A DNA stretch of 8,575 bases from Muribaculaceae bacterium (GTDB lineage: Bacteria; Bacteroidota; Bacteroidia; Bacteroidales; Muribaculaceae). The notes beneath the pieces are model-generated. The model was not told the DNA's origin and made no database searches. It was given only the letters and a program-made list of their open reading frames with translations. A program made the position numbers and the translations under genes. This document shows positions 61-8,575 of the stretch, one piece after another. The stretch spans positions 1 to 8,575 of the forward strand of contig JAIDKP010000041.1 of the NCBI GenBank assembly GCA_029051445.1, given 5' to 3'. How positions within the stretch are numbered: position 1 is the stretch's first letter; every line of letters begins with the position of its first letter.

Positions 61-87
61 GACATTGCACGAGCCGTACGTCCCTAC
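61..87 (-). repeat. REP-like element, downstream flank of short RAYT gene
   Basis: Read on the minus strand, this begins with the head GTAG (87-84) and continues GGACGTACG-GCT-CGTGC, then AATGTC. The core folds as a 5-bp stem (79-75 with 71-67, one G-T pair) around a GCT loop. An AAT bulge (66-64) separates it from a further G-A-C/G-T-C pairing (81-79 side with 63-61). A GTAG or GGAG head followed by an imperfect palindrome with a bulge is the known form of REP sequences mobilised by RAYT transposases. It points away from the RAYT gene, with its head 36 bp past the stop. The family call is by shape and by likeness to the copies at 601-625 and 667-703. Confidence 0.6.
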
Positions 88-122
88 TCTCAAGGATGTT
101 GATGACAAACTATCCTATTCTC

Positions 123-593
123 TCAGGAGTAGAAACAGTCGTCATCCCACCTTGCCACGTTGTTTGTTATGTATTCTTCGATCAGTTTTCCGTCGTGATT
201 TCCACGTATAATGTGGTCGTGATATCTTGTTTGCCATGCAAACTCATAATCATTGCGTTTAGCGTATAATGTAATGGAGCGTTTAAGCCCGCCAATAACT
301 ACAGATAGTGCCATGCGCTCGCATGGGGTATTCTTGTCTGTAATCTCGACAATAATGTGAATATGATTGGGCATTATAACCCATATGACAGGTGTACAAT
401 AGGGATAGTGCCGGTTTAGTTGGGATATTTGTGCATCGGCATACAATCCTACTTCAGTATATTTCATTTTACTGTTTTGGATACTACCAAAATAGTGTCG
501 TTTGTCAGCCGTACAGATTGTGACAAAATAGCATCCGCCGGAATAGTTGTGGAAAGTGGCTCTTGGAGATTTTCGGCAAGGATGATTTTGCAT
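123..593 (-). CDS. REP-associated tyrosine transposase (RAYT, IS200-like Y1 HUH family), 156 aa
   Basis: This is a single-strand DNA endonuclease/transposase of the Y1_Tnp (IS200/IS605-like) superfamily, RAYT branch. Such enzymes cut and join at REP hairpins through a 5'-phosphotyrosine link. Visible landmarks are the N-terminal strand GGCYFVTICT (19-28), the HUH-type motif MPNHIH (His77 and His79, metal ligands), the conserved WQTRYHDHIIR block (120-130), and YITNNVARW (141-149), where Tyr141 is the expected nucleophile. The length suits a compact but complete RAYT. The ATG at 593 places the start about 18 residues before the first conserved strand. No Shine-Dalgarno sequence is seen. It is the last gene of the minus-strand run, 114 bp after the DUF4493-PCMD gene. 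It has REP-like hairpins on both sides with heads towards the gene. Catalytic residues look intact, so activity is possible but inferred. Confidence 0.88.
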   Translation of the reverse strand: MQNHPCRKSPRATFHNYSGGCYFVTICTADKRHYFGSIQNSKMKYTEVGLYADAQISQLNRHYPYCTPVIWVIMPNHIHIIVEITDKNTPCERMALSVVIGGLKRSITLYAKRNDYEFAWQTRYHDHIIRGNHDGKLIEEYITNNVARWDDDCFYS

Positions 594-707: not shown

Positions 708-2957
708 TCAGTAGACGAGCTCCAGGTCGTCGAGGTACATTATGGAGCCATCGGCACCGGCGAAGTAGTCGCCGCCTTTCGATGCCGATGCAGTGATTAT
801 GATATATTCCGGAATTTCTCCCTTACGGTAGTAGTCAAGATCGATTGTGAACTCAATCATGCCATCACCTCCAGTTTTATCAAAGACTTTTTCTCCGTAG
901 GCAATGACATTAGAGGCCGTTTTATCAAATAAATGAGCATCCTTTGTCCTTACTTCCACAGGATTAGTACCATTGCCTTGAACATTACAATCATCGTTCA
1001 GCAATGCGATATAGATGATTCCTTTGTCAGGTTGGCCTTTGACGATATCAGGAACGTTATTATTAGTAGAGCTAACTGTACCGGGATTGTATTTTACATA
1101 ACCTTTCAGCTGTTTTGGACAGTATTTAAGGCCTTCAAACTTGCGTCCCCAGCCGAGTACACCATTTGTGCCATCCGTTCTCAGATATTCTCCTATAAAT
1201 ATATTACCTGCTGCAAGTACGCCAAAAATTGATTGTGAATACAGCTTAACAGAATAATCACCTGAATTTTTTATTTCAGAAGAAAGTGTTGTAACATCAC
1301 GAGCTACAAATGCAACAGAGCATGAACCATGATTACCTGAATCCCAAAACATATTGGACTTATCCCCAGTATAAAAGACTGTAGGTTTGCTACCTTGTGC
1401 GATCTCAAAACCGGCATTAGGAAGCTGGGGATTGAGGGTTGTCTGTTGCATGGATGCAAGCCCCTCTTTTCTATTAAATGCTGCCTTGTATTCATATGTG
1501 CATCCCTGTTTGAGGTTGGTAACTGTTGCCTCAAATTCCTTATTTATCAAGATTGAGCGGGAAGCAACATTACCTTCAATATATTTCCACCCCGTTTCAC
1601 CTTCAGCTCGATAGTAGAAGCCGACTTCGTCGACATCATTTTTTGAAACTTTACCTCTGAATACGAGTGAAGTAGGTGTCTGAGCTTCAATATCGGGGTC
1701 AGTTGCAGGGAGTAGGATCGCGCCATCATCGGAGACAATCAGACGCAGCATGGTTGCTGTAGTCTTAGGATTTACATCCTCTGTCCCAAAATCGATATCA
1801 GTAGCCGATATCGTTATTTTGTACTCACCTTCTTTAAGTGTGTTTGTAAAACTATCAGAGAGCGTAATAAGGCATGTTGAGATTTCTTTTTCTTTATTGG
1901 AAGTGAAGCTGCCGATTATACCTTTAGACTTTAGAATATCAATATTTTTGTCATCGGAAGTCATGAAGTCTATAGTATTAGTTGAAGTACCGGTGAGGGC
2001 ACTCAGCTCATTCATATTCATTGTGACTGCATTCAGAGTGCCTGATGAGCGCACACTGATTTGAAGGTTGCCTACGTTGTTTGTCGCGCGACTAAACGGA
2101 GCATTTTCGCCAAGCTCAAAATCTTCATGTGCTTCATCAGAGTATCCCTTAATTTCAGGGGAGGTGCGGAAATGGATGTCGTGTCTTATGTCGAGCGACT
2201 CCTCGTCGATGCTGATGTCGAATGCTCCTGCTCCCATTTCGGTGTCGGGATCTTCATAGTTGATGCGGAAGCGGTATTTTGTAGATGCTTTCGCATCTTT
2301 TATCACGCCCTCATGGTAGTATGCTTTTTTGTTTTTGTCGATACCGTGGAAGACCCACTTCATGTCGTGGTTGCCTGTCGGGAGCATGAAGTAGCCGGTG
2401 CGTGTCTCGCGCCCCTCGAAGTTGAGCGATGTCGAGGCGGTTGTGACGACGAGCGAATAGTGTTCGAGCATATTGTCGATCTGGTCGGAATACACGACAT
2501 CGACGGCAGTGTTGGCTATCTTGCATGTCAGACGCACGTTGGTGCGTGTGTCGGGCTGCAAGGTCAATGTCTGTTTTCCCTTGAAGTATCGGCGTGTCCA
2601 CGATGCCGCGATGCTGTCGCCGGTCCATCCCTCGATAGTGTAGGTGCCTGAATTGAGCTTGAAGTCCATAGAACTCCCCGGACCGTTTCTCCACGGGAAT
2701 CCCGATGCGCTGTTCCAGTATCTGATGGCATTGCCTTTGGGTGTCGATACCACTATGTTGAGTTTCTGAATCAGATTCTCGGTATCTGATTCAGTGGTAC
2801 GGCTTACCGGCTGAGTGTCGACGGTGTCGTTGATATCAAGAGTGAGTGATACTTCGGCTTCGCCTTCGCCATCGGTGTAGATAGAGTCTTCGGTGCACCC
2901 CGACAGAGTTGCCGTTGCCAGAAGTGCAAGCGATATATATGTGTATTTGAGTCTCAT
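708..2957 (-). CDS. DUF4493 and PCMD domain-containing lipoprotein, 749 aa
   Basis: This is a predicted outer-membrane lipoprotein of unknown function. The signal peptide is MRLKYTYISLALLATATLSG, with lipobox L-S-G-C and lipidated Cys21 followed by Thr-Glu-Asp, an acidic start that may direct surface display. By eye the domains are: DUF4493 at about 32-290 (Ser-Arg near 52, RRYFKGKQTLTL at 122-133, TCKIAN at 144-149); an Ig-like segment at about 294-412; an FN3-like segment at about 425-507 (FYYRAEG at 447-453, TYEYKAAFNR at 487-496); and a PCMD domain at about 510-749. The PCMD domain opens with QLPNAGFE and ends YLDDLELVY. PCMD is a Pfam name only and no catalytic residues can be assigned. 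The gene starts 15 bp after the stop of the upstream gene, so the two are probably co-transcribed. DNA for residues 1 to about 269 is much richer in GC than the rest. Confidence 0.88.
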   Translation of the reverse strand: MRLKYTYISLALLATATLSGCTEDSIYTDGEGEAEVSLTLDINDTVDTQPVSRTTESDTENLIQKLNIVVSTPKGNAIRYWNSASGFPWRNGPGSSMDFKLNSGTYTIEGWTGDSIAASWTRRYFKGKQTLTLQPDTRTNVRLTCKIANTAVDVVYSDQIDNMLEHYSLVVTTASTSLNFEGRETRTGYFMLPTGNHDMKWVFHGIDKNKKAYYHEGVIKDAKASTKYRFRINYEDPDTEMGAGAFDISIDEESLDIRHDIHFRTSPEIKGYSDEAHEDFELGENAPFSRATNNVGNLQISVRSSGTLNAVTMNMNELSALTGTSTNTIDFMTSDDKNIDILKSKGIIGSFTSNKEKEISTCLITLSDSFTNTLKEGEYKITISATDIDFGTEDVNPKTTATMLRLIVSDDGAILLPATDPDIEAQTPTSLVFRGKVSKNDVDEVGFYYRAEGETGWKYIEGNVASRSILINKEFEATVTNLKQGCTYEYKAAFNRKEGLASMQQTTLNPQLPNAGFEIAQGSKPTVFYTGDKSNMFWDSGNHGSCSVAFVARDVTTLSSEIKNSGDYSVKLYSQSIFGVLAAGNIFIGEYLRTDGTNGVLGWGRKFEGLKYCPKQLKGYVKYNPGTVSSTNNNVPDIVKGQPDKGIIYIALLNDDCNVQGNGTNPVEVRTKDAHLFDKTASNVIAYGEKVFDKTGGDGMIEFTIDLDYYRKGEIPEYIIITASASKGGDYFAGADGSIMYLDDLELVY

Positions 2958-2972
2958 TGTTGTATCGTGGGC

Positions 2973-4550
2973 TTAATCGGTGACAATTGAAAGCACTACG
3001 GTTTTTGTATTGCCTTGGTTATCGGTCACTGAGATCTCGAAATTATGAGTACCGTGGAAACTCTCGAGCAGTCCCATCGGTTCGGTAATGTCGAATGTCA
3101 CATCGGTCTTGTCTTTGACCTGATCGCCGTAGGCTATGTGGAAGGTTTCGCCCAACTCTTTGGCATCGTCGGGTTTAGCGAAGTCAAGTCCCGACAAGCC
3201 GGCACCGATCATGGCGAAATCATCGTCGGTCGATGAAATGTTGAGTATTAGTCTTGCAATACCTGCATCGGCATGGATAAACACTTTTCCATCAAGGTCG
3301 GTGCTGAATTTGTTTGGAGTGTCAAATTTCAACTGGCTGGCCGAGAATGTGATCTGTGCCTGCGGCGGGGTGGGCTCTTCGGGCTCTTCCGGGTCGGGAT
3401 CCACTACCGGTGGTTCCGGATCCTCGGGCTTGGGATTCACGGGCTCGGCGGGGATAGCGTTGTCGTCGGTGAGATCCTGAGGGGGACGCTGCGGATCCTC
3501 GGGCTGTGCCGTCGGCGGTGTATAGTCGGGATCATCGTCGCCGGGGCGTATGATGCCTGTGATCGGATCATAGTATTCGCCCGGATAGCTCATGTTGAGG
3601 TTGACGGTCTTTATTGTAACGTCGAGATATAGTCCGTTGGAAAGTTCGATACGTCCGGTTGTCGGATCCTCGGGATCGGTTCCCGGTTTATCGGGATTCT
3701 CCGGGTCAGTTCCGGGCTTGTCGGGATCCTCCGGATCGGTTCCGGGATTGTTCGGGGCCTCGGGATCGGTTCCCGGTTTATCGGGATCCTCCGGGTCAGT
3801 TCCGGGATTGTCCGGATCCTCGGGATCGATTCCCGGTTTATTTGGATCATCGGGTGTTGTCGGATCGTTTACCGGCTTGAGCGAGTAATAGATTATGCGG
3901 TGCTGTCCCGGCTCAAGATCGGTGTAGACAGCCTGCAGGGTCAGCGGTTTTCCGCTGACGGTGCCGTTGAGTGTGGCGATGAGTGTCTTGCTGGCATCGG
4001 TGTATTGGAAATATCCGGCCTTGTTGGCATCAATGTCGGCAAGCGAGAAAGTCAGTTCGCCTTCGTCGTTGGCAATGACATGTACGTGGCAGTCCGATGC
4101 CATGAGCGGTCGAAGGTCTTTGGCGACGCTGACCGAAACTTTGATGTTGGCGAGCCGACATATGACCTTTTCAACTTCGGTAGTTGCGTCTTCGTTGATT
4201 GTCAGAACTTTTGTCCCCTCGTAGTATGGTGCTTCCCATGCTGCTTTCTGCACTTCGGATGTGCGTACGATTACAGAATAGTCACCTGTCTCAAGCTGAA
4301 GGTTGTCGGGCAGCTGGCTATAGGTGTATCGGTTGATGATTTTTGTGCCGTCGGTTACTTCTACCGTGAATTCATCGGAGTCGATTGTGCGGCCTATATT
4401 CTGTTCGCCTGAAATCTCGCAGACAATGGATTTGAACGACAGTGTCCCATATTTTTTGCCTGGTCCGTCGTGGTTCCATGTTTCATCTTTGCATCCGGTG
4501 GCGAGTGTAGCCAGTAGGCTTAAAATCAGAAAAATATGATATCTTTTCAT
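2973..4550 (-). CDS. DUF4493 lipoprotein with Asp-Pro-Glu repeat linker, 525 aa
   Basis: This is a predicted lipoprotein of unknown function. The signal peptide is followed by lipobox A-T-G-C, lipidated Cys20 and then Lys-Asp-Glu, which resembles the acidic export signal of surface lipoproteins in Bacteroidota. The DUF4493 core spans about residues 33-225 (KKYGTLSFKS at 32-41, AAWEAPYYEGTKVLTI at 103-118, VICRLANIKVSV at 129-140). A run of 10-residue units such as GTDPEDPDKP follows at about 231-296. Next come a short strand-rich piece (299-320) and a second acidic, Pro-rich linker (337-397). A C-terminal Ig-like domain (398-525) resembles the middle segments of the two PCMD proteins. There is no PCMD domain. 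The repeats would form a stiff, extended, negatively charged stalk. It is co-transcribed by position: 19 bp after the previous gene and 15 bp before the next. Confidence 0.85.
   Translation of the reverse strand: MKRYHIFLILSLLATLATGCKDETWNHDGPGKKYGTLSFKSIVCEISGEQNIGRTIDSDEFTVEVTDGTKIINRYTYSQLPDNLQLETGDYSVIVRTSEVQKAAWEAPYYEGTKVLTINEDATTEVEKVICRLANIKVSVSVAKDLRPLMASDCHVHVIANDEGELTFSLADIDANKAGYFQYTDASKTLIATLNGTVSGKPLTLQAVYTDLEPGQHRIIYYSLKPVNDPTTPDDPNKPGIDPEDPDNPGTDPEDPDKPGTDPEAPNNPGTDPEDPDKPGTDPENPDKPGTDPEDPTTGRIELSNGLYLDVTIKTVNLNMSYPGEYYDPITGIIRPGDDDPDYTPPTAQPEDPQRPPQDLTDDNAIPAEPVNPKPEDPEPPVVDPDPEEPEEPTPPQAQITFSASQLKFDTPNKFSTDLDGKVFIHADAGIARLILNISSTDDDFAMIGAGLSGLDFAKPDDAKELGETFHIAYGDQVKDKTDVTFDITEPMGLLESFHGTHNFEISVTDNQGNTKTVVLSIVTD
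3664..3854 (-). repeat. Tandem 30-bp coding repeat (about 6.3 copies)
   Basis: Consecutive 30-bp units begin at 3664, 3694, 3724, 3754, 3784 and 3814, with a partial unit from 3844. Units 1 and 4 are near-identical (GATCGGTTCCCGGTTTATCG in both), while units 2, 3 and 5 share a different 3' half (TTCCGGG followed by C/A-TTG). This hints at duplication of blocks longer than one unit. On the minus strand each unit encodes one Asp-Pro-Glu-Asp-Pro-Asp-Lys/Asn-Pro-Gly-Thr decapeptide. Units abut with no spacers. The copy number is a multiple of three bases and could change by slippage without breaking the frame. Confidence 0.9.
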
Positions 4551-4569
4551 GATTGTCGTGATGATAGTG

Positions 4570-5292
4570 TCATCTGCCGTCGGCAGTCTTTATCGAGAAT
4601 GTGAATATGTGGTGTTCCTTGCCCGGATTCTCGACAGTAACGGTTTTGGTCATTACGATTTTATTGCCGGATACTGTTCCGGTGAATGTTGCTGTGAGGG
4701 TATTTCCTTGCGTGACAAGAAAATATCCGGCTGAAGGCGCGTTCTCTGACTCATCAAGTTTGTGACCTCGGAAATCGAGGCTTTTTCCGTTCTCGTCAGC
4801 CACGATTCTTACGTCCCAGTCACCTTCGGTCTGTTGTTCAAGATAGTCGTCGATTACAATCGAGACTTTGGTATTGATGAGCCGGCAAATGACCGGATCA
4901 ACCTCTGTGATGAGGTTTTCTCGGATGGTAAAATTCTGAATGCCTTTGTAATATGGTGCATTGAATGCCGCACTCTCAAGTGTGTTGCGGCTGTGGACTT
5001 CAATCGTGTAGTCTCCTACAGGCAGCCGCACTACCTCCGGGAGGTTCTCGTAGGCATATTTTGTGATGGTATCGTTACCCTGCAATATTTCGACAGTCAT
5101 TAATACGTCGCCTGTGTTGCGGCTCATTGCATCGGCAATTTCGCTTACGTCGATAGAAAGCGATTTAGTCGACAGGGTTCCGTATGTTTTTTCGCTGTCG
5201 CTGATCGGTTCGTCGCTGCTGCACGACGTTGTCGCCGCCATGACGGTCAGCGCCGTTGCAAATGCGATAATATATTTATTTATCATTTTCAT
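4570..5292 (-). CDS. Short DUF4493 domain lipoprotein, 240 aa
   Basis: This is a predicted lipoprotein of unknown function made almost only of a DUF4493 domain. The N-terminal signal peptide runs to about residue 23. The lipobox is T-T-S-C, weaker than in its neighbours, with lipidated Cys24 and Asp-Glu four residues on. Family landmarks are TYGTLSTKSLSIDV (36-49), a Ser-Arg near 57, LPVGDYTIEV (90-99), APYYKGIQNFTI (112-123), VICRLINTKVSIVI (134-147) and a final HHIFTFSIK (227-235). It stops where the 525-aa paralogue runs on into its repeat linker. It therefore lacks the linker, Ig-like and PCMD parts. The start at 5292 lies 3 bp after the RAYT stop (5296-5298), which suggests translational coupling or a join left by the RAYT insertion. 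I saw no degraded downstream remnant in the 19 bp before the next gene, so a naturally short member is more likely than a truncated one. Confidence 0.85.
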   Translation of the reverse strand: MKMINKYIIAFATALTVMAATTSCSSDEPISDSEKTYGTLSTKSLSIDVSEIADAMSRNTGDVLMTVEILQGNDTITKYAYENLPEVVRLPVGDYTIEVHSRNTLESAAFNAPYYKGIQNFTIRENLITEVDPVICRLINTKVSIVIDDYLEQQTEGDWDVRIVADENGKSLDFRGHKLDESENAPSAGYFLVTQGNTLTATFTGTVSGNKIVMTKTVTVENPGKEHHIFTFSIKTADGR

Positions 5293-5295
5293 GAT

Positions 5296-6105
5296 TTATG
5301 AAATTTGTGTCATATTCTGTTTCGTATGGGTGTGCAAGAGTATGCCCTCATTGTTGTGTGAAATTTCTTTCATAATGGTTTCATGACATTCGATTTTGCC
5401 GTCCCATTTGGCTACATTGTCACGGATGTAGTCGGAAATGCGTGATGCTTCATACATGTTCCGTATGATTCTGTCATGGTATCTTGGTTGCCATGCAAAA
5501 TCGATTATATTGTTTTTTCTTGCGTAGGTTGTTACTGCAGATTTAAGGCAGCAGACCACTGTCCCCAATGGTGTGATCCTGAATGGTTTTTTGGGCGTAC
5601 TGTCGCACGCCCCTACGGCGTGTTGTTGAGGATCTGGTGTATGTGATAATATGGCTGCGTCAGGGTTTATCGATATGATTGCATGTATATGGTTTGGCAT
5701 TATTTGCCATTGGATCGGTTCACAGTAGGGGTGATGTGACTGAAGATCTGTGATAATCTCATTTGCATACTTGCCTATAGACGTGAATTTCATCTCGCCG
5801 TTACTGATTTTTCCGAAATGATGCCTCGCGTTTTTAGTGCATATTGTTATGAAGTAAATACCGCCGTCGTAATCATGCCCGTTGTGGCGGTATGATTTAC
5901 GGTCGTAGGTAACGAATGTTGGGTGGTTCGTGATTTCTGTGGGCGTACTGTCGCACGCCCATACGGCGTTGATGTAGTTTCTGTTATGATGGTTGGCGGT
6001 GCTGTCGTTGGTGGATGATGTAGGGGCGTGCGACAGTACGCCCACCACCGTGTTATTGGCGTGGATGGCTGATGAGTTGCAATATGTTACAGCTGTTTCA
6101 GTCAT
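5296..6105 (-). CDS. RAYT-type IS200-like HUH transposase carrying in-frame REP-like palindromes, about 269 aa
   Basis: This is a Y1 transposase of the REP-associated branch, predicted to nick and join single-stranded DNA at REP hairpins. Residues are numbered from the ATG at 6105. The conserved part begins near TYDRKSYRHNGH (66-77). It continues with GGIYFITICT (81-90), MPNHIH with His139 and His141, RYHDRIIR (208-215), and DYIRDNVAKW where Tyr226 is the expected nucleophile. Compared with the 156-aa RAYT it has about 65 extra N-terminal residues, about 23 extra residues between the HUH motif and Tyr, and about 35 extra at the C-terminus. The N-terminal and central extras are partly encoded by palindromes at 6020-6045, 5939-5964 and 5593-5616. 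The ATG lies 5 bp after the upstream stop; a TTG at 6114 would overlap that stop. No later ATG, and no GTG or TTG that I could find, precedes the core. Key residues are present, but activity is uncertain given the insertions. Confidence 0.8.
   Translation of the reverse strand: MTETAVTYCNSSAIHANNTVVGVLSHAPTSSTNDSTANHHNRNYINAVWACDSTPTEITNHPTFVTYDRKSYRHNGHDYDGGIYFITICTKNARHHFGKISNGEMKFTSIGKYANEIITDLQSHHPYCEPIQWQIMPNHIHAIISINPDAAILSHTPDPQQHAVGACDSTPKKPFRITPLGTVVCCLKSAVTTYARKNNIIDFAWQPRYHDRIIRNMYEASRISDYIRDNVAKWDGKIECHETIMKEISHNNEGILLHTHTKQNMTQIS
5593..5616 (-). repeat. REP-like palindrome inside the RAYT coding sequence (copy A)
   Basis: On the minus strand this is GTAG (5616-5613) followed by a hairpin, GGGCGTGC-GACA-GTACGCCC: 8 pairs including one G-U, with a GACA loop. 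It encodes the in-frame peptide HAVGACDSTP between the HUH motif and the catalytic-Tyr region of the enzyme. With its flanks it matches 5940-5969 in direct orientation over 30 bp with one difference. Confidence 0.8.
5939..5964 (-). repeat. REP-like palindrome in the RAYT 5' region (copy B, inverted to copy C)
   Basis: This has the same 20-nt hairpin as copy A (5941-5960), but the head is GTAT instead of GTAG (5964-5961). It encodes NAVWACDSTP. It is a 26-bp inverted repeat of 6020-6045 with one mismatch and a 55-bp spacer, so copies B and C form a BIME-like pair with heads facing inward. It lies about 30 bp upstream of the codons for the first conserved RAYT residues. Confidence 0.8.
6020..6045 (+). 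repeat. REP-like palindrome in the RAYT 5' region (copy C)
   Basis: Head GTAG (6020-6023), hairpin GGGCGTGC-GACA-GTACGCCC (6024-6043), then AC. It is opposite in orientation to copies A and B, so on the coding strand it gives the unrelated peptide VGVLSHAPTSS rather than ACDSTP. It lies 60 bp into the ATG-started reading frame. If the true start were further in, it would be untranslated leader. Confidence 0.8.
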
Positions 6106-6110
6106 CGGTA

Positions 6111-8575
6111 TCAATCGTAGTTGAGTTGGATGTCGTCGATATAGAGTTCAGAACCAACATATTCGCCGCCGGAAACATTTTTATTCCCAGGTCCATATAG
6201 CCAAGATTCGTTGTTTGTGAGACTCGGATTTGCCGATGACTTAAATCTTACCATGATTTTGGATGCAACTTTGTTTACGCGATAGTTGCCGTCATTGTTG
6301 ACAAACTTTGCCGTAACTTTGTTATAAGTGTTTTGGGCTTTGAATTCCAGTTTAATCGTTTCGGAAATCGGCTGATTGTTCTCATCTGTTATTACAGCTT
6401 CAAATTCACCATAATCACTGGAGTTGAATGGAACATATTTATAGTAAAATTCGATTGATATAGGACGTGAAGCAAATGGCATTCCTATATACTTGTCACC
6501 GTCTTTAGTGCCAATGAAGAGCTCGCCTGCTGCAACATTCTGGCAGGTTGAAAATCCGCTTGCGGGATTGCCTGTTCCTGCACCGGCTTTATTGCTTGAG
6601 CCATACCCTACTGTGCGTATTAAGGCTGCATTAGTCCCGGTATGAGATTTGTCGGTATGCAGACTTGCATTTCCTTCAGTGTGTCCGTCAGCATTCGTTG
6701 TAGTGCCCCAAAAGCCTCCATATGAATTGGAATAGTTTGATCTGGAATTTGCTGGAATTGTGCCGCTTGTCGCTTTATAAGCACACCCTCCAGTATTTGT
6801 GCCGTTACCAGATCCAGAGCCGTAAGTGGATATTGTTGTTTCATTAGCAGTCGACCATCCACTTATAGACCATAGATATTGATAGTCTCCCTTCTTGGTT
6901 GCAGACCAAGCTGCTGTTTCAAAACCGGAGTTGGGGAGCTGGAGTTTTTCTTCGGTGGTGAAGGGGCAGCGTGAAAGGTTTAGACCGTTGAGGCTTACAT
7001 TGGCAGTGTATTGCGTGTTGTGTGTGAGTCCTGTAATTTTATATGTCAGAGGGTCATCATCGGATTTTTGAAGCTGATTGTTTTCAAATCCGGTGATCCT
7101 GATGTTTTCAGCTATAATGTCCCGGTATTTAGCACTGTCCGGATTTATGTAAAGTTTGGCATAAGTAGTCCATGTGTCATAGTCGGGAGCTATAGCTTTG
7201 AATGCCGGAACGAAGATCTCGTCTTGCTGACTGATGTTTTCGCCAATGTCGCCGAACACGTTGAAGTATGGTGTTGTCAGCGGTGTGTTGAATGTGAAGA
7301 TGTATTCGTTTTCAGTGTCGCCGTTCTCTATCTTGGTTGGGGTAGCGGGGATGTCGGTGCCGGTATTTGACACGATGTGGAATTTCAGCCACTTTTTGAT
7401 GTTGCTGCCGTTGTAGATCGCTTTGACCTGATAGGTAGGATTGACGACAATGTCTTTTACGGCCTCGACCGAGAATGTCACTGGTGCGAGGTTGACTTTC
7501 AGTGTGTTGTTGTCGGCAAGGGTAGCATCGGTCGTGCGGCCGAGGCGGTCGGTCACTGCCAGTGTGATTGTCTTGGTCTCGCTACCTGCGTCGCGTGACT
7601 TGCATCGCAGCGCTGCCACAAAGTCCTCAAGATAGATTTTGGCAAACTCGCAGTCTTTTTTGAGGTTGAGCATGCGTAGCCCTTTCTGCTCGAGTGTCTT
7701 GACGTCAAGCTCGTCGAGAAGGTTGTAGGTGTCGGGAGCTTCGTCGCCGTCGGCTATAGAGAGTGTGGCTGTTGCGAGTCCCGATCGGGCTGCTATGTTG
7801 AATGCGTAGCCGTCGCTGTGTGTCTCGATAAGATTAACCGGCACTCCGCCTTCAAAGCCTTCGGGAATGATGACCGGTTCGGGAGGTGTGACGAGATCTT
7901 CGAGGTCTTTGGTGAGGTCAATTACGATCGGCTCAACATCGTTGAATGTGTCGTCGAAGCTGACGGTGAGTGTGGCGGTTCCTGTCGATGCTTCAACATC
8001 GAGGGCGACACGGTGGAGAGTGGCTTTCTTTGCAGTAAAATAGCCGATGGTGATGAGCGCGTCGGCCCCCGAAGGCATGACCACACGGGCATCGATGCGC
8101 GCGTTGCCCGGATTGATATATACCGGGCGTGTCTCGCCTGGATTGACAACGAGCGAGTTACCTTCGGCTGAATTGAGTACGATCTTTACCGACTGGAAAT
8201 AGTTTATGAACGATTCGGTCGGCTCAAACATCACCAGCGAGTTGGCGACTTTGGCGGTAAGCGAGACCGAGGTGCTTTTGCCGGCGACTACCGGAAATGT
8301 TGTCTCGCCATAGAGCTGGGGCGACTCGAATCCTTCGGCATTTGTGTTTCCGAAAGTCGCTGTCATCGTGTAGGTGTCGGCAGGAAAGTCCTTGTCGGCA
8401 GGAAATTCGTTGCGCGACGGCCATGTAGCGGAATATGATCCCGATTTATTGGTGAGCGATATAGTGAGCTTGTCGGCTGTCAGCGAGCTGAGTACCGGCA
8501 TGTAGGGTGTGGTGGTGCGTGAAACGACCGACTGTGTGATGGTCTTGTCGGCTTCAAGTGTCAGGTTTATAGCTG
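6111..8575 (-). CDS. DUF4493 and PCMD domain-containing protein, 5' end outside window (at least 820 aa seen)
   Basis: The frame stays open past the ATG at 8501 to the window edge (first whole codon at 8573). That extra stretch reads NLTLEADKTIT...VVSRTTTPY, a typical DUF4493 opening, so the real start and signal peptide lie to the right. Residues below are numbered from 8501. DUF4493 spans roughly the edge to 205 (SPQLYGETTFPV at 60-71, SLTAKVANSLVMF at 80-92). An Ig-like segment follows at about 230-340. A strand-rich part (340-470) precedes a short FN3-like segment (470-515). A PCMD domain occupies about 520-796, from QLPNSGFETAAW to ELYIDDIQLNYD, with an ISIEFYYKYVP block at 681-691. The Gly/Ser/Thr-rich stretch at 560-650 is unusually long. 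It is presumably a lipoprotein like its paralogues. The ligand or activity is unknown. DNA for the last 350 residues or so is AT-rich. Confidence 0.87.
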   Translation of the reverse strand, partial: AINLTLEADKTITQSVVSRTTTPYMPVLSSLTADKLTISLTNKSGSYSATWPSRNEFPADKDFPADTYTMTATFGNTNAEGFESPQLYGETTFPVVAGKSTSVSLTAKVANSLVMFEPTESFINYFQSVKIVLNSAEGNSLVVNPGETRPVYINPGNARIDARVVMPSGADALITIGYFTAKKATLHRVALDVEASTGTATLTVSFDDTFNDVEPIVIDLTKDLEDLVTPPEPVIIPEGFEGGVPVNLIETHSDGYAFNIAARSGLATATLSIADGDEAPDTYNLLDELDVKTLEQKGLRMLNLKKDCEFAKIYLEDFVAALRCKSRDAGSETKTITLAVTDRLGRTTDATLADNNTLKVNLAPVTFSVEAVKDIVVNPTYQVKAIYNGSNIKKWLKFHIVSNTGTDIPATPTKIENGDTENEYIFTFNTPLTTPYFNVFGDIGENISQQDEIFVPAFKAIAPDYDTWTTYAKLYINPDSAKYRDIIAENIRITGFENNQLQKSDDDPLTYKITGLTHNTQYTANVSLNGLNLSRCPFTTEEKLQLPNSGFETAAWSATKKGDYQYLWSISGWSTANETTISTYGSGSGNGTNTGGCAYKATSGTIPANSRSNYSNSYGGFWGTTTNADGHTEGNASLHTDKSHTGTNAALIRTVGYGSSNKAGAGTGNPASGFSTCQNVAAGELFIGTKDGDKYIGMPFASRPISIEFYYKYVPFNSSDYGEFEAVITDENNQPISETIKLEFKAQNTYNKVTAKFVNNDGNYRVNKVASKIMVRFKSSANPSLTNNESWLYGPGNKNVSGGEYVGSELYIDDIQLNYD

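What the first reader, a model, noticed from the sequence alone, without database searches (positions are those of the whole stretch)
5593..6045. Transposase gene with its own class of REP-like palindrome inside its reading frame, three times
Three copies of one GTAG-headed 20-nt hairpin lie within the RAYT ORF. Two are in the same orientation and reading frame, and both yield the peptide ACDSTP (HAVGACDSTP and NAVWACDSTP). The third is inverted. Copy A sits between the HUH motif and the catalytic-Tyr helix, a segment 23 residues longer than in the neighbouring RAYT (62 versus 85 residues from the second His to the Tyr). RAYTs are known to act on REP hairpins, so the gene may carry its substrate within its own coding sequence, transcribed as hairpins in its mRNA. 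This could allow self-targeting, autoregulation by binding its own message, or REP spread into a tolerant loop. The repeats and frame are seen directly; the roles are inference.
Basis: partly seen in the sequence, partly recalled or inferred. Interest (0 to 1): 0.75.

Follow-up and report, generated by a model that had tools for sequence, protein, structure and literature searches.

The report
Transposase gene carrying its own target
A bacterial transposase gene holds, inside its own protein-coding sequence, copies of a short DNA hairpin that is repeated through its genome and is likely the DNA its enzyme cuts; this is already reported for its enzyme group, and in a set of related genes such hairpins stay nearly unchanged while the rest of the gene diverges.

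Summary
Three near-identical copies of GTAGGGGCGTGCGACAGTACGCCC lie in frame inside a RAYT reading frame. The head of the middle copy has mutated to GTAT, and a likely fourth, decayed copy lies at 5324-5347. The hairpin is a dispersed repeat: 21 copies at <=3 mismatches in the 2.25-Mb own assembly, 0 in the reversed control.

It is not unique, and not new in outline: Quentin et al. [quoted passage not shown]

What I add is quantitative. In 43 of 107 RAYTs of one family such hairpins sit inside the conserved core (62 hits, 0.88 expected by codon shuffling; 4.1 per kb in the loop, 0.20 in other ORFs). They match the hairpins outside their own core (39 of 46). In one clade they stay 85-87% identical while fourfold sites are 28% identical. 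In 5 of 21 genome/hairpin cases every copy found lies in the RAYT frame. The DNA hairpin, not the peptide, is what is kept. RAYT-driven spread is likely; autoregulation is untested.

The parts
5296..6105 (-). RAYT1 gene (269 aa, ATG 6103-6105 to stop 5296-5298; TTG 6114 is an alternative start)
   Evidence: Pfam Y1_Tnp 23.5 bits, cut-off 23; profile match to PDB 4er8, E=1.4e-7; Foldseek 4er8, ISDra2 and IS608 transposases, probability 1.00; HUH at residues 139-141 and Tyr 226. It is not among the 3 Y1_Tnp matches of the own genome.
5593..5616 (-). REP hairpin copy in the loop after the HUH motif, residues 164-171 VGACDSTP, sense to the gene
   Evidence: the loop has pLDDT under 50 at 157-167 and 170-175
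5941..5964 (-). REP hairpin copy in the N-terminal extension, head mutated to GTAT, residues 48-55 VWACDSTP, sense to the gene
   Evidence: P0001 and P0002 encode G where the window has W
6020..6043 (+). REP hairpin copy in the N-terminal extension, antisense to the gene, residues 21-29 VGVLSHAPT; head-to-head with the 5941 copy, 55 nt between
5324..5347 (+). Likely decayed fourth REP copy in the C-terminal tail, antisense to the gene, residues 253-261 EGILLHTHT
   Evidence: pattern widened to fit it; folds no better than shuffles; P0002 encodes VGVLSHAPT here
6111..8501 (-). Upstream gene of a DUF4493 lipoprotein-like cluster; its stop (6111-6113) lies 5 nt before the RAYT1 ATG
4570..5292 (-). 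Downstream DUF4493 gene; its ATG (5290-5292) lies 3 nt after the RAYT1 stop
123..593 (-). RAYT2, the neighbouring RAYT, used for comparison: HUH-Tyr distance 62 residues, no internal hairpin found

Best explanation
This is a RAYT (REP-associated tyrosine transposase) gene whose reading frame holds, in frame, three near-identical copies and likely one decayed copy of a hairpin that is repeated through its genome and is likely the DNA its own enzyme binds and cuts. The copies were most likely put there by RAYT-driven REP insertion (inferred). They persist where 8-9 extra residues would do little harm: the N- and C-terminal tails and the loop after the HUH motif (low model confidence there is shown; tolerance is inferred). 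In a set of relatives the hairpin, not the peptide, is preserved: a gene's internal copies match that gene's own REP variant, including the unpaired loop bases (shown). The likely reason is that only hairpins that match the encoded enzyme are kept or renewed (inferred).
For: The hairpin is dispersed: 21 copies at <=3 mismatches, 0 in the reversed control. The protein is a RAYT by profile and fold. In 107 RAYT frames, 62 GTAG-hairpin hits fall in the cores of 43 against 0.88 expected; loop 4.1/kb, other ORFs 0.20/kb. Outside the family 19 of 28 RAYTs have them, all in the loop. Internal elements match a copy outside the core of the same locus (<=2 mismatches) in 39 of 46 cases; random other locus mean 2.5, at most 8 of 46. 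Loop and core2 copies in 10 genes differ by 2 bases in total against 30.9 permuted, 0 of 20000 permutations as low. Hairpins stay 85-87% identical among genes with 28% fourfold-site identity. Low pLDDT at the three tails/loop.
Against: No binding or cleavage was tested, and the window has no close relative with DNA in hand: P0001-P0003 are proteins only, and the nearest RAYT in the family sample is 55% identical over 132 columns. Genes for the conservation test were picked for having hairpins. The RAYT tree is weakly resolved: 12 of 104 inner branches starred. In 5 of 21 genome/hairpin cases there is no outside copy, so renewal from a resident pool cannot be the whole story. The core2 copies replace rather than lengthen a structured stretch next to WQ (by eye), so not every copy sits in a dispensable loop. 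The middle copy of the window has lost its GTAG head.
Confidence: 0.68

Rival explanations
1. Passive insertion: REPs land in the RAYT gene now and then, are neutral in loops, and look conserved only because RAYT genes with their REPs move by horizontal transfer or because REPs are re-inserted at the same sites. This is close to the reading of Quentin et al. 2018.
For: The loop label needs 25 changes on the tree, near the shuffled mean of 32.5; decayed copies exist (window 5324; L120, L123, L133); outside copies identical to the internal ones are common (27 of 46 at 0 mismatches).
Against: Hairpins 85-87% identical at sites shared by genes whose fourfold sites are near chance; paired copies that agree also in unpaired loop bases; 5 of 21 cases with no outside copy left.
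Confidence: 0.35
2. Cis regulation: the internal hairpins are binding sites on the gene or its mRNA by which the RAYT limits its own expression or activity.
For: Upkeep of the hairpin at DNA level and genomes in which all copies found are internal. PMC3733652 (passage) notes that REP hairpins may lower RAYT expression.
Against: Orientation to the transcript is mixed: loop hits 20 sense and 25 antisense, core2 14 of 14 antisense (palindromes with two feet count on both strands); PMC8266576 (passage) says the reverse strand is not bound in the RAYTs studied there, so a sense-mRNA role is not general. 64 of 107 RAYTs have no such hairpin in the core. No expression data.
Confidence: 0.25
3. The palindrome is a by-product of a conserved peptide motif (ACDSTP) needed by the protein.
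For: The same peptide occurs twice in the window protein and nearly so in P0001 and P0002.
Against: The third copy reads VGVLSHAPT; P0003 has VGARESTP and VGVQVHAPT; other RAYTs encode ADAPGCIPT, VGTRYIAS, CRDAINRVST and others at the loop; orientation and frame vary.
Confidence: 0.03

Closest known systems
TnpAREP/RAYT subclass 2.4 with REP insertions (Quentin et al. 2018, PMC6006769)
   Same: HUH-Y1 enzyme with NHIH and WQ; long HuH-Y distance (85 here, median 88 in the paper); REP hairpins inside the gene, in frame, between HuH and Y; stem foot of G-C pairs
   Different: Here all cognate copies in the window lie inside the gene, also in both tails, none flanking; upkeep and tracking of the hairpin are measured; Y motif reads YIRDNV rather than YIxNNP
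REPIN / BIME (PMC3116915, listing only; definition partly recalled)
   Same: Dispersed copies of this REP include head-to-head pairs with about 41 nt between
   Different: The pair inside the RAYT has a 55-nt spacer that looks unrelated by eye; the loop copy is single
Intragenic GTAG/CGTC REPs and Rickettsia palindromic elements (PMC3733652, passages)
   Same: Short palindromes read through in frame inside proteins
   Different: Those sit in unrelated genes; here the host gene encodes the presumed mobiliser of the repeat
IS200/IS605 TnpA (ISDra2, IS608)
   Same: HUH-Y1 fold and action on hairpins (recalled)
   Different: In those elements the hairpins lie at the element's ends, outside the transposase gene (recalled)

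Membership tests
RAYT / TnpAREP subclass 2.4 | HuH motif NH[IFV]H and WQ motif (Table in PMC6006769, passage) | tested here: met
   MPNHIH and FAWQ in the sequence
RAYT / TnpAREP subclass 2.4 | Y motif YIxNNP | tested here: not met
   YIRDNV: Tyr-Ile and the second Asn present, the NP part differs. I therefore call it a RAYT most like subclass 2.4, not a proven member.
RAYT / TnpAREP subclass 2.4 | HuH-Y distance, median 88 | tested here: met
   85 residues
RAYT / TnpAREP subclass 2.4 | REP insertions within the gene, in frame, generally between HuH and Y | tested here: met
   relatives
RAYT / TnpAREP subclass 2.4 | REPs flanking the gene (REPtron) | tested here: not met
   No cognate copy at <=3 mismatches elsewhere in the 8.6-kb window; one decayed copy lies in the tail of the frame
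RAYT / TnpAREP subclass 2.4 | Placement by the subclass profiles of the paper | not testable with these tools
   Those profiles are not held
RAYT (TnpAREP in general) | Binds and cleaves its cognate REP as single-stranded DNA | not testable with these tools
   Experiment needed
REPIN | Two inverted REPs with a spacer, present in several copies in the genome | tested here: inconclusive
   Genomic pairs on C37, C237 and C294 fit; the pair inside the RAYT differs in spacer length and, by eye, in spacer sequence

The most novel reading that the evidence does not exclude
RAYTs of this group keep a matched copy of their own substrate inside the coding sequence as a functional cis element that ties enzyme and target together: the hairpin is held by DNA-level selection, tracks the enzyme's changing specificity down to the unpaired loop bases, and persists even in genomes where no other copy remains.
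Probability: 0.28. Interest if true: 0.8.

Novelty: new member of a known kind. Interest (0 to 1): 0.5.

Why it matters
Why bacteria keep single-copy RAYT genes is an open question. Internal REPs give a record of enzyme-target co-evolution inside one gene: the enzyme sequence and the hairpin it would recognise are physically joined, so specificity could be read off many natural pairs. Genomes in which all copies found lie inside the RAYT gene make a clean system to test whether the hairpin does something for the gene itself.

Tried and rejected
Considered and rejected: chance palindromes; a conserved peptide; a general sense-strand mRNA hairpin (mixed orientation); the N-terminal pair as a plain genomic REPIN (spacer differs). 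A first region assignment by regular expression failed on many genes and was replaced by a profile-based one. One search (genome contigs) gave one distant relative only (L025). One search found no paper. (PMC3686654, three passages) had nothing on intragenic copies.

Rows dropped: 6 partial frames (L126 twice, one of two in L066, L079, L107, L135). Of the match rows I had 30 loci and took 80 further places; the remaining, mostly short or weak rows were not fetched. In one search the rows without a locus were not fetched, and L196 (the window's family) was left out. Searches used 10 and 13 of the 17 clade members listed, those with intact copies; left out were L098, L102, L109 (no core2 copy in the usual orientation) and L134 (ambiguous letters). 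One of the three core1 elements (L132) looks like a chance hairpin. Palindromes with a foot on both ends count on both strands; one search merges them for the main set only. In one search the pattern does not fit the hairpins of G131, G076 and G193, and fits that of G160 only at its limit, so these four are not counted. The 21 genome/hairpin cases are: own genome; G177, G389, G071; G058, G098, G218, G076, G150; G320, G213, G208, G250, G058, G395, G119; G680, G493, G757; G579, G545. G213 is the weakest of the five internal-only cases: one of its two copies is itself 2 mismatches from the pattern, so near variants of it could be missed, and that copy lies upstream of the core in an open frame whose start codon is not established.

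Full report
What is there. The window is one contig of a 2.25-Mb, 494-contig assembly, 88% complete. The minus-strand frame from ATG 6105 to 5296 encodes a 269-residue RAYT: Pfam Y1_Tnp at 23.5 bits, just over the cut-off of 23 (a genome scan with the same family, did not list it), a profile match to the solved RAYT 4er8 at E=1.4e-7, and Foldseek matches with probability 1.00 to 4er8 and to the ISDra2 and IS608 transposases. Three near-identical 24-mers lie in it: 5593-5616 (-), 5941-5964 (-, head GTAT) and 6020-6043 (+). All read through in frame. A likely fourth, decayed copy lies at 5324-5347 in the C-terminal tail; the related protein P0002 encodes the intact hairpin peptide there. The model has pLDDT under 50 at residues 1-76, 157-167, 170-175 and 252-269 (mean pLDDT 65), and the four copies encode residues 21-29, 48-55, 164-171 and 253-261. 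The gene is wedged between two DUF4493-family genes, with 5 nt before it and 3 nt after it; no cognate REP at <=3 mismatches lies elsewhere in the window.

It is a dispersed repeat. The own genome holds 21 copies at <=3 mismatches, the three of the window included, and 0 in the reversed control. Of the other 18 copies, 4 overlap a frame of 150 aa or more by a mechanical ORF test: two near the start of one 507-aa frame, one near the end of a 225-aa frame, one in a 156-aa frame; the rest lie outside such frames. Pairs on C37, C237 and C294 are head-to-head with 41 nt between, the REPIN arrangement. A second class, GTAGGGACGCACGGCTCGTGCGTCC, has 11 copies.

It is a general property of RAYTs here. 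Of 397 genomes of the same family (own included), 110 encode a relative at E<=1e-10. In 107 RAYT frames analysed, GTAG-headed hairpins fall within the conserved core of 43: 45 hits in the loop after HUH (11.0 kb), 14 in the second core half (17.7 kb), 3 in the first (24.6 kb). Codon shuffling predicts 0.88 in all, and 232 other ORFs in the same loci have 40 hits in 201.6 kb. Merged for palindromes that count on both strands, these are 59 elements. In other families of the order 19 of 28 RAYTs have them, 34 hits, all in the loop, against 0.19 expected for whole cores. The tree of the 107 is weakly resolved (12 of 104 inner branches starred) and needs 25 changes of the loop label, against 32.5 for shuffled labels, so gains and losses are frequent.

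The hairpin is cognate, and it is what is kept. Internal elements match a copy outside the core in the same locus within 2 mismatches in 39 of 46 cases; a random other locus gives a mean of 2.5 and at most 8 of 46. Of 17 within-gene pairs, 15 differ by at most 2 bases; the other two differ by 10, which I attribute to the chance core1 hairpin of L132. In one clade the loop copy (sense) and a copy directly before the WQ motif (antisense) change together: stems GGACGCGA, GGGCGCGA or GGGCGCAA with loops TATA, TACA, TTAA, TTCT or TATT agree within each of 10 genes apart from 2 bases in total (L124, L110), against 30.9 permuted. Because one copy is inverted, the same DNA gives TRYIAS in one place and TRCIAS in the other; in L098 the site before WQ holds the hairpin (head GTAC) in the other orientation and another frame. 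Outside the hairpins and the loop, fourfold sites of 13 such genes are 28% identical, near chance, while the core2 hairpins are 87% and the loop hairpins (10 genes) 85% identical; the sister genes L123 and L130 share 24 of 24 bases at both sites with 42% fourfold identity at 24 sites. A further copy in L123 that has lost its GTAG head also differs in stem and loop from the intact pair, though its own stem still pairs. Caveats: genes were picked for having hairpins, and the head and foot are part of the search rule.

Genomes without a pool. In 5 of 21 genome/hairpin cases examined at 2 or 3 mismatches, every copy found lies inside the open RAYT frame: G177 and G389, G098, 76% complete, G213 (weakest, see Tried and rejected) and G493. 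The other 16 have copies elsewhere. This argues against simple renewal from a resident pool, but recent arrival of the gene by horizontal transfer is not excluded.

What is known. Quentin et al. 2018 (PMC6006769; section 13 read; other passages) report REP insertions within tnpAREP genes as a unique feature of subclass 2.4, in frame and generally between HuH and Y, and suggest little effect on activity. PMC3733652 (passages) reports intragenic REPs in other genes and notes that RAYT expression may be lowered by REP hairpins. PMC8266576 (passages) shows strand-specific recognition involving GTAG, stem irregularities or loop in other RAYTs. In the open-access library I saw no account of internal hairpins tracking the outside ones, or of genomes with internal copies only (searches; passages read); supplements such as Figure S10 of PMC6006769 could not be read here, so they may hold part of this.

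Verdict. The DNA-level upkeep is the part worth following. That the enzyme acts on these hairpins, and that they regulate the gene, is inference.

Noticed in passing
window 61-96 and 667-703: RAYT2 (123-593) has palindromes on both sides that resemble the second REP class of the genome (GTAGGGACGCACGGCTCGTGCGTCC, 11 copies) but are degenerate: none within 3 mismatches in the window (one arm pair listed). It looks like an ordinary flanked RAYT beside the internal-REP one.
   Followed up: partly
G000:C373:542-599: One copy of each of the two REP classes of this genome lie next to each other in the same orientation, 9 nt apart.
   Followed up: no
window 3664-3854: A 30-nt tandem repeat lies inside the DUF4493 gene at 2973-4550 and encodes a Pro/Asp/Gly-rich stretch.
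   Followed up: no
window 708-8575: Four DUF4493 genes, two of them with a PCMD match (one of these below the Pfam cut-off), lie on one strand with the RAYT gene between two of them, 5 and 3 nt away: the RAYT may be co-transcribed with surface-protein genes.
   Followed up: no
L108, L117, L120 (core1 turn): A third landing place for the hairpin in a turn of the first core half (GxIVGTRFFASELG), intact in L108 and L117 and decayed in L120, with a peptide remnant in L133.
   Followed up: partly
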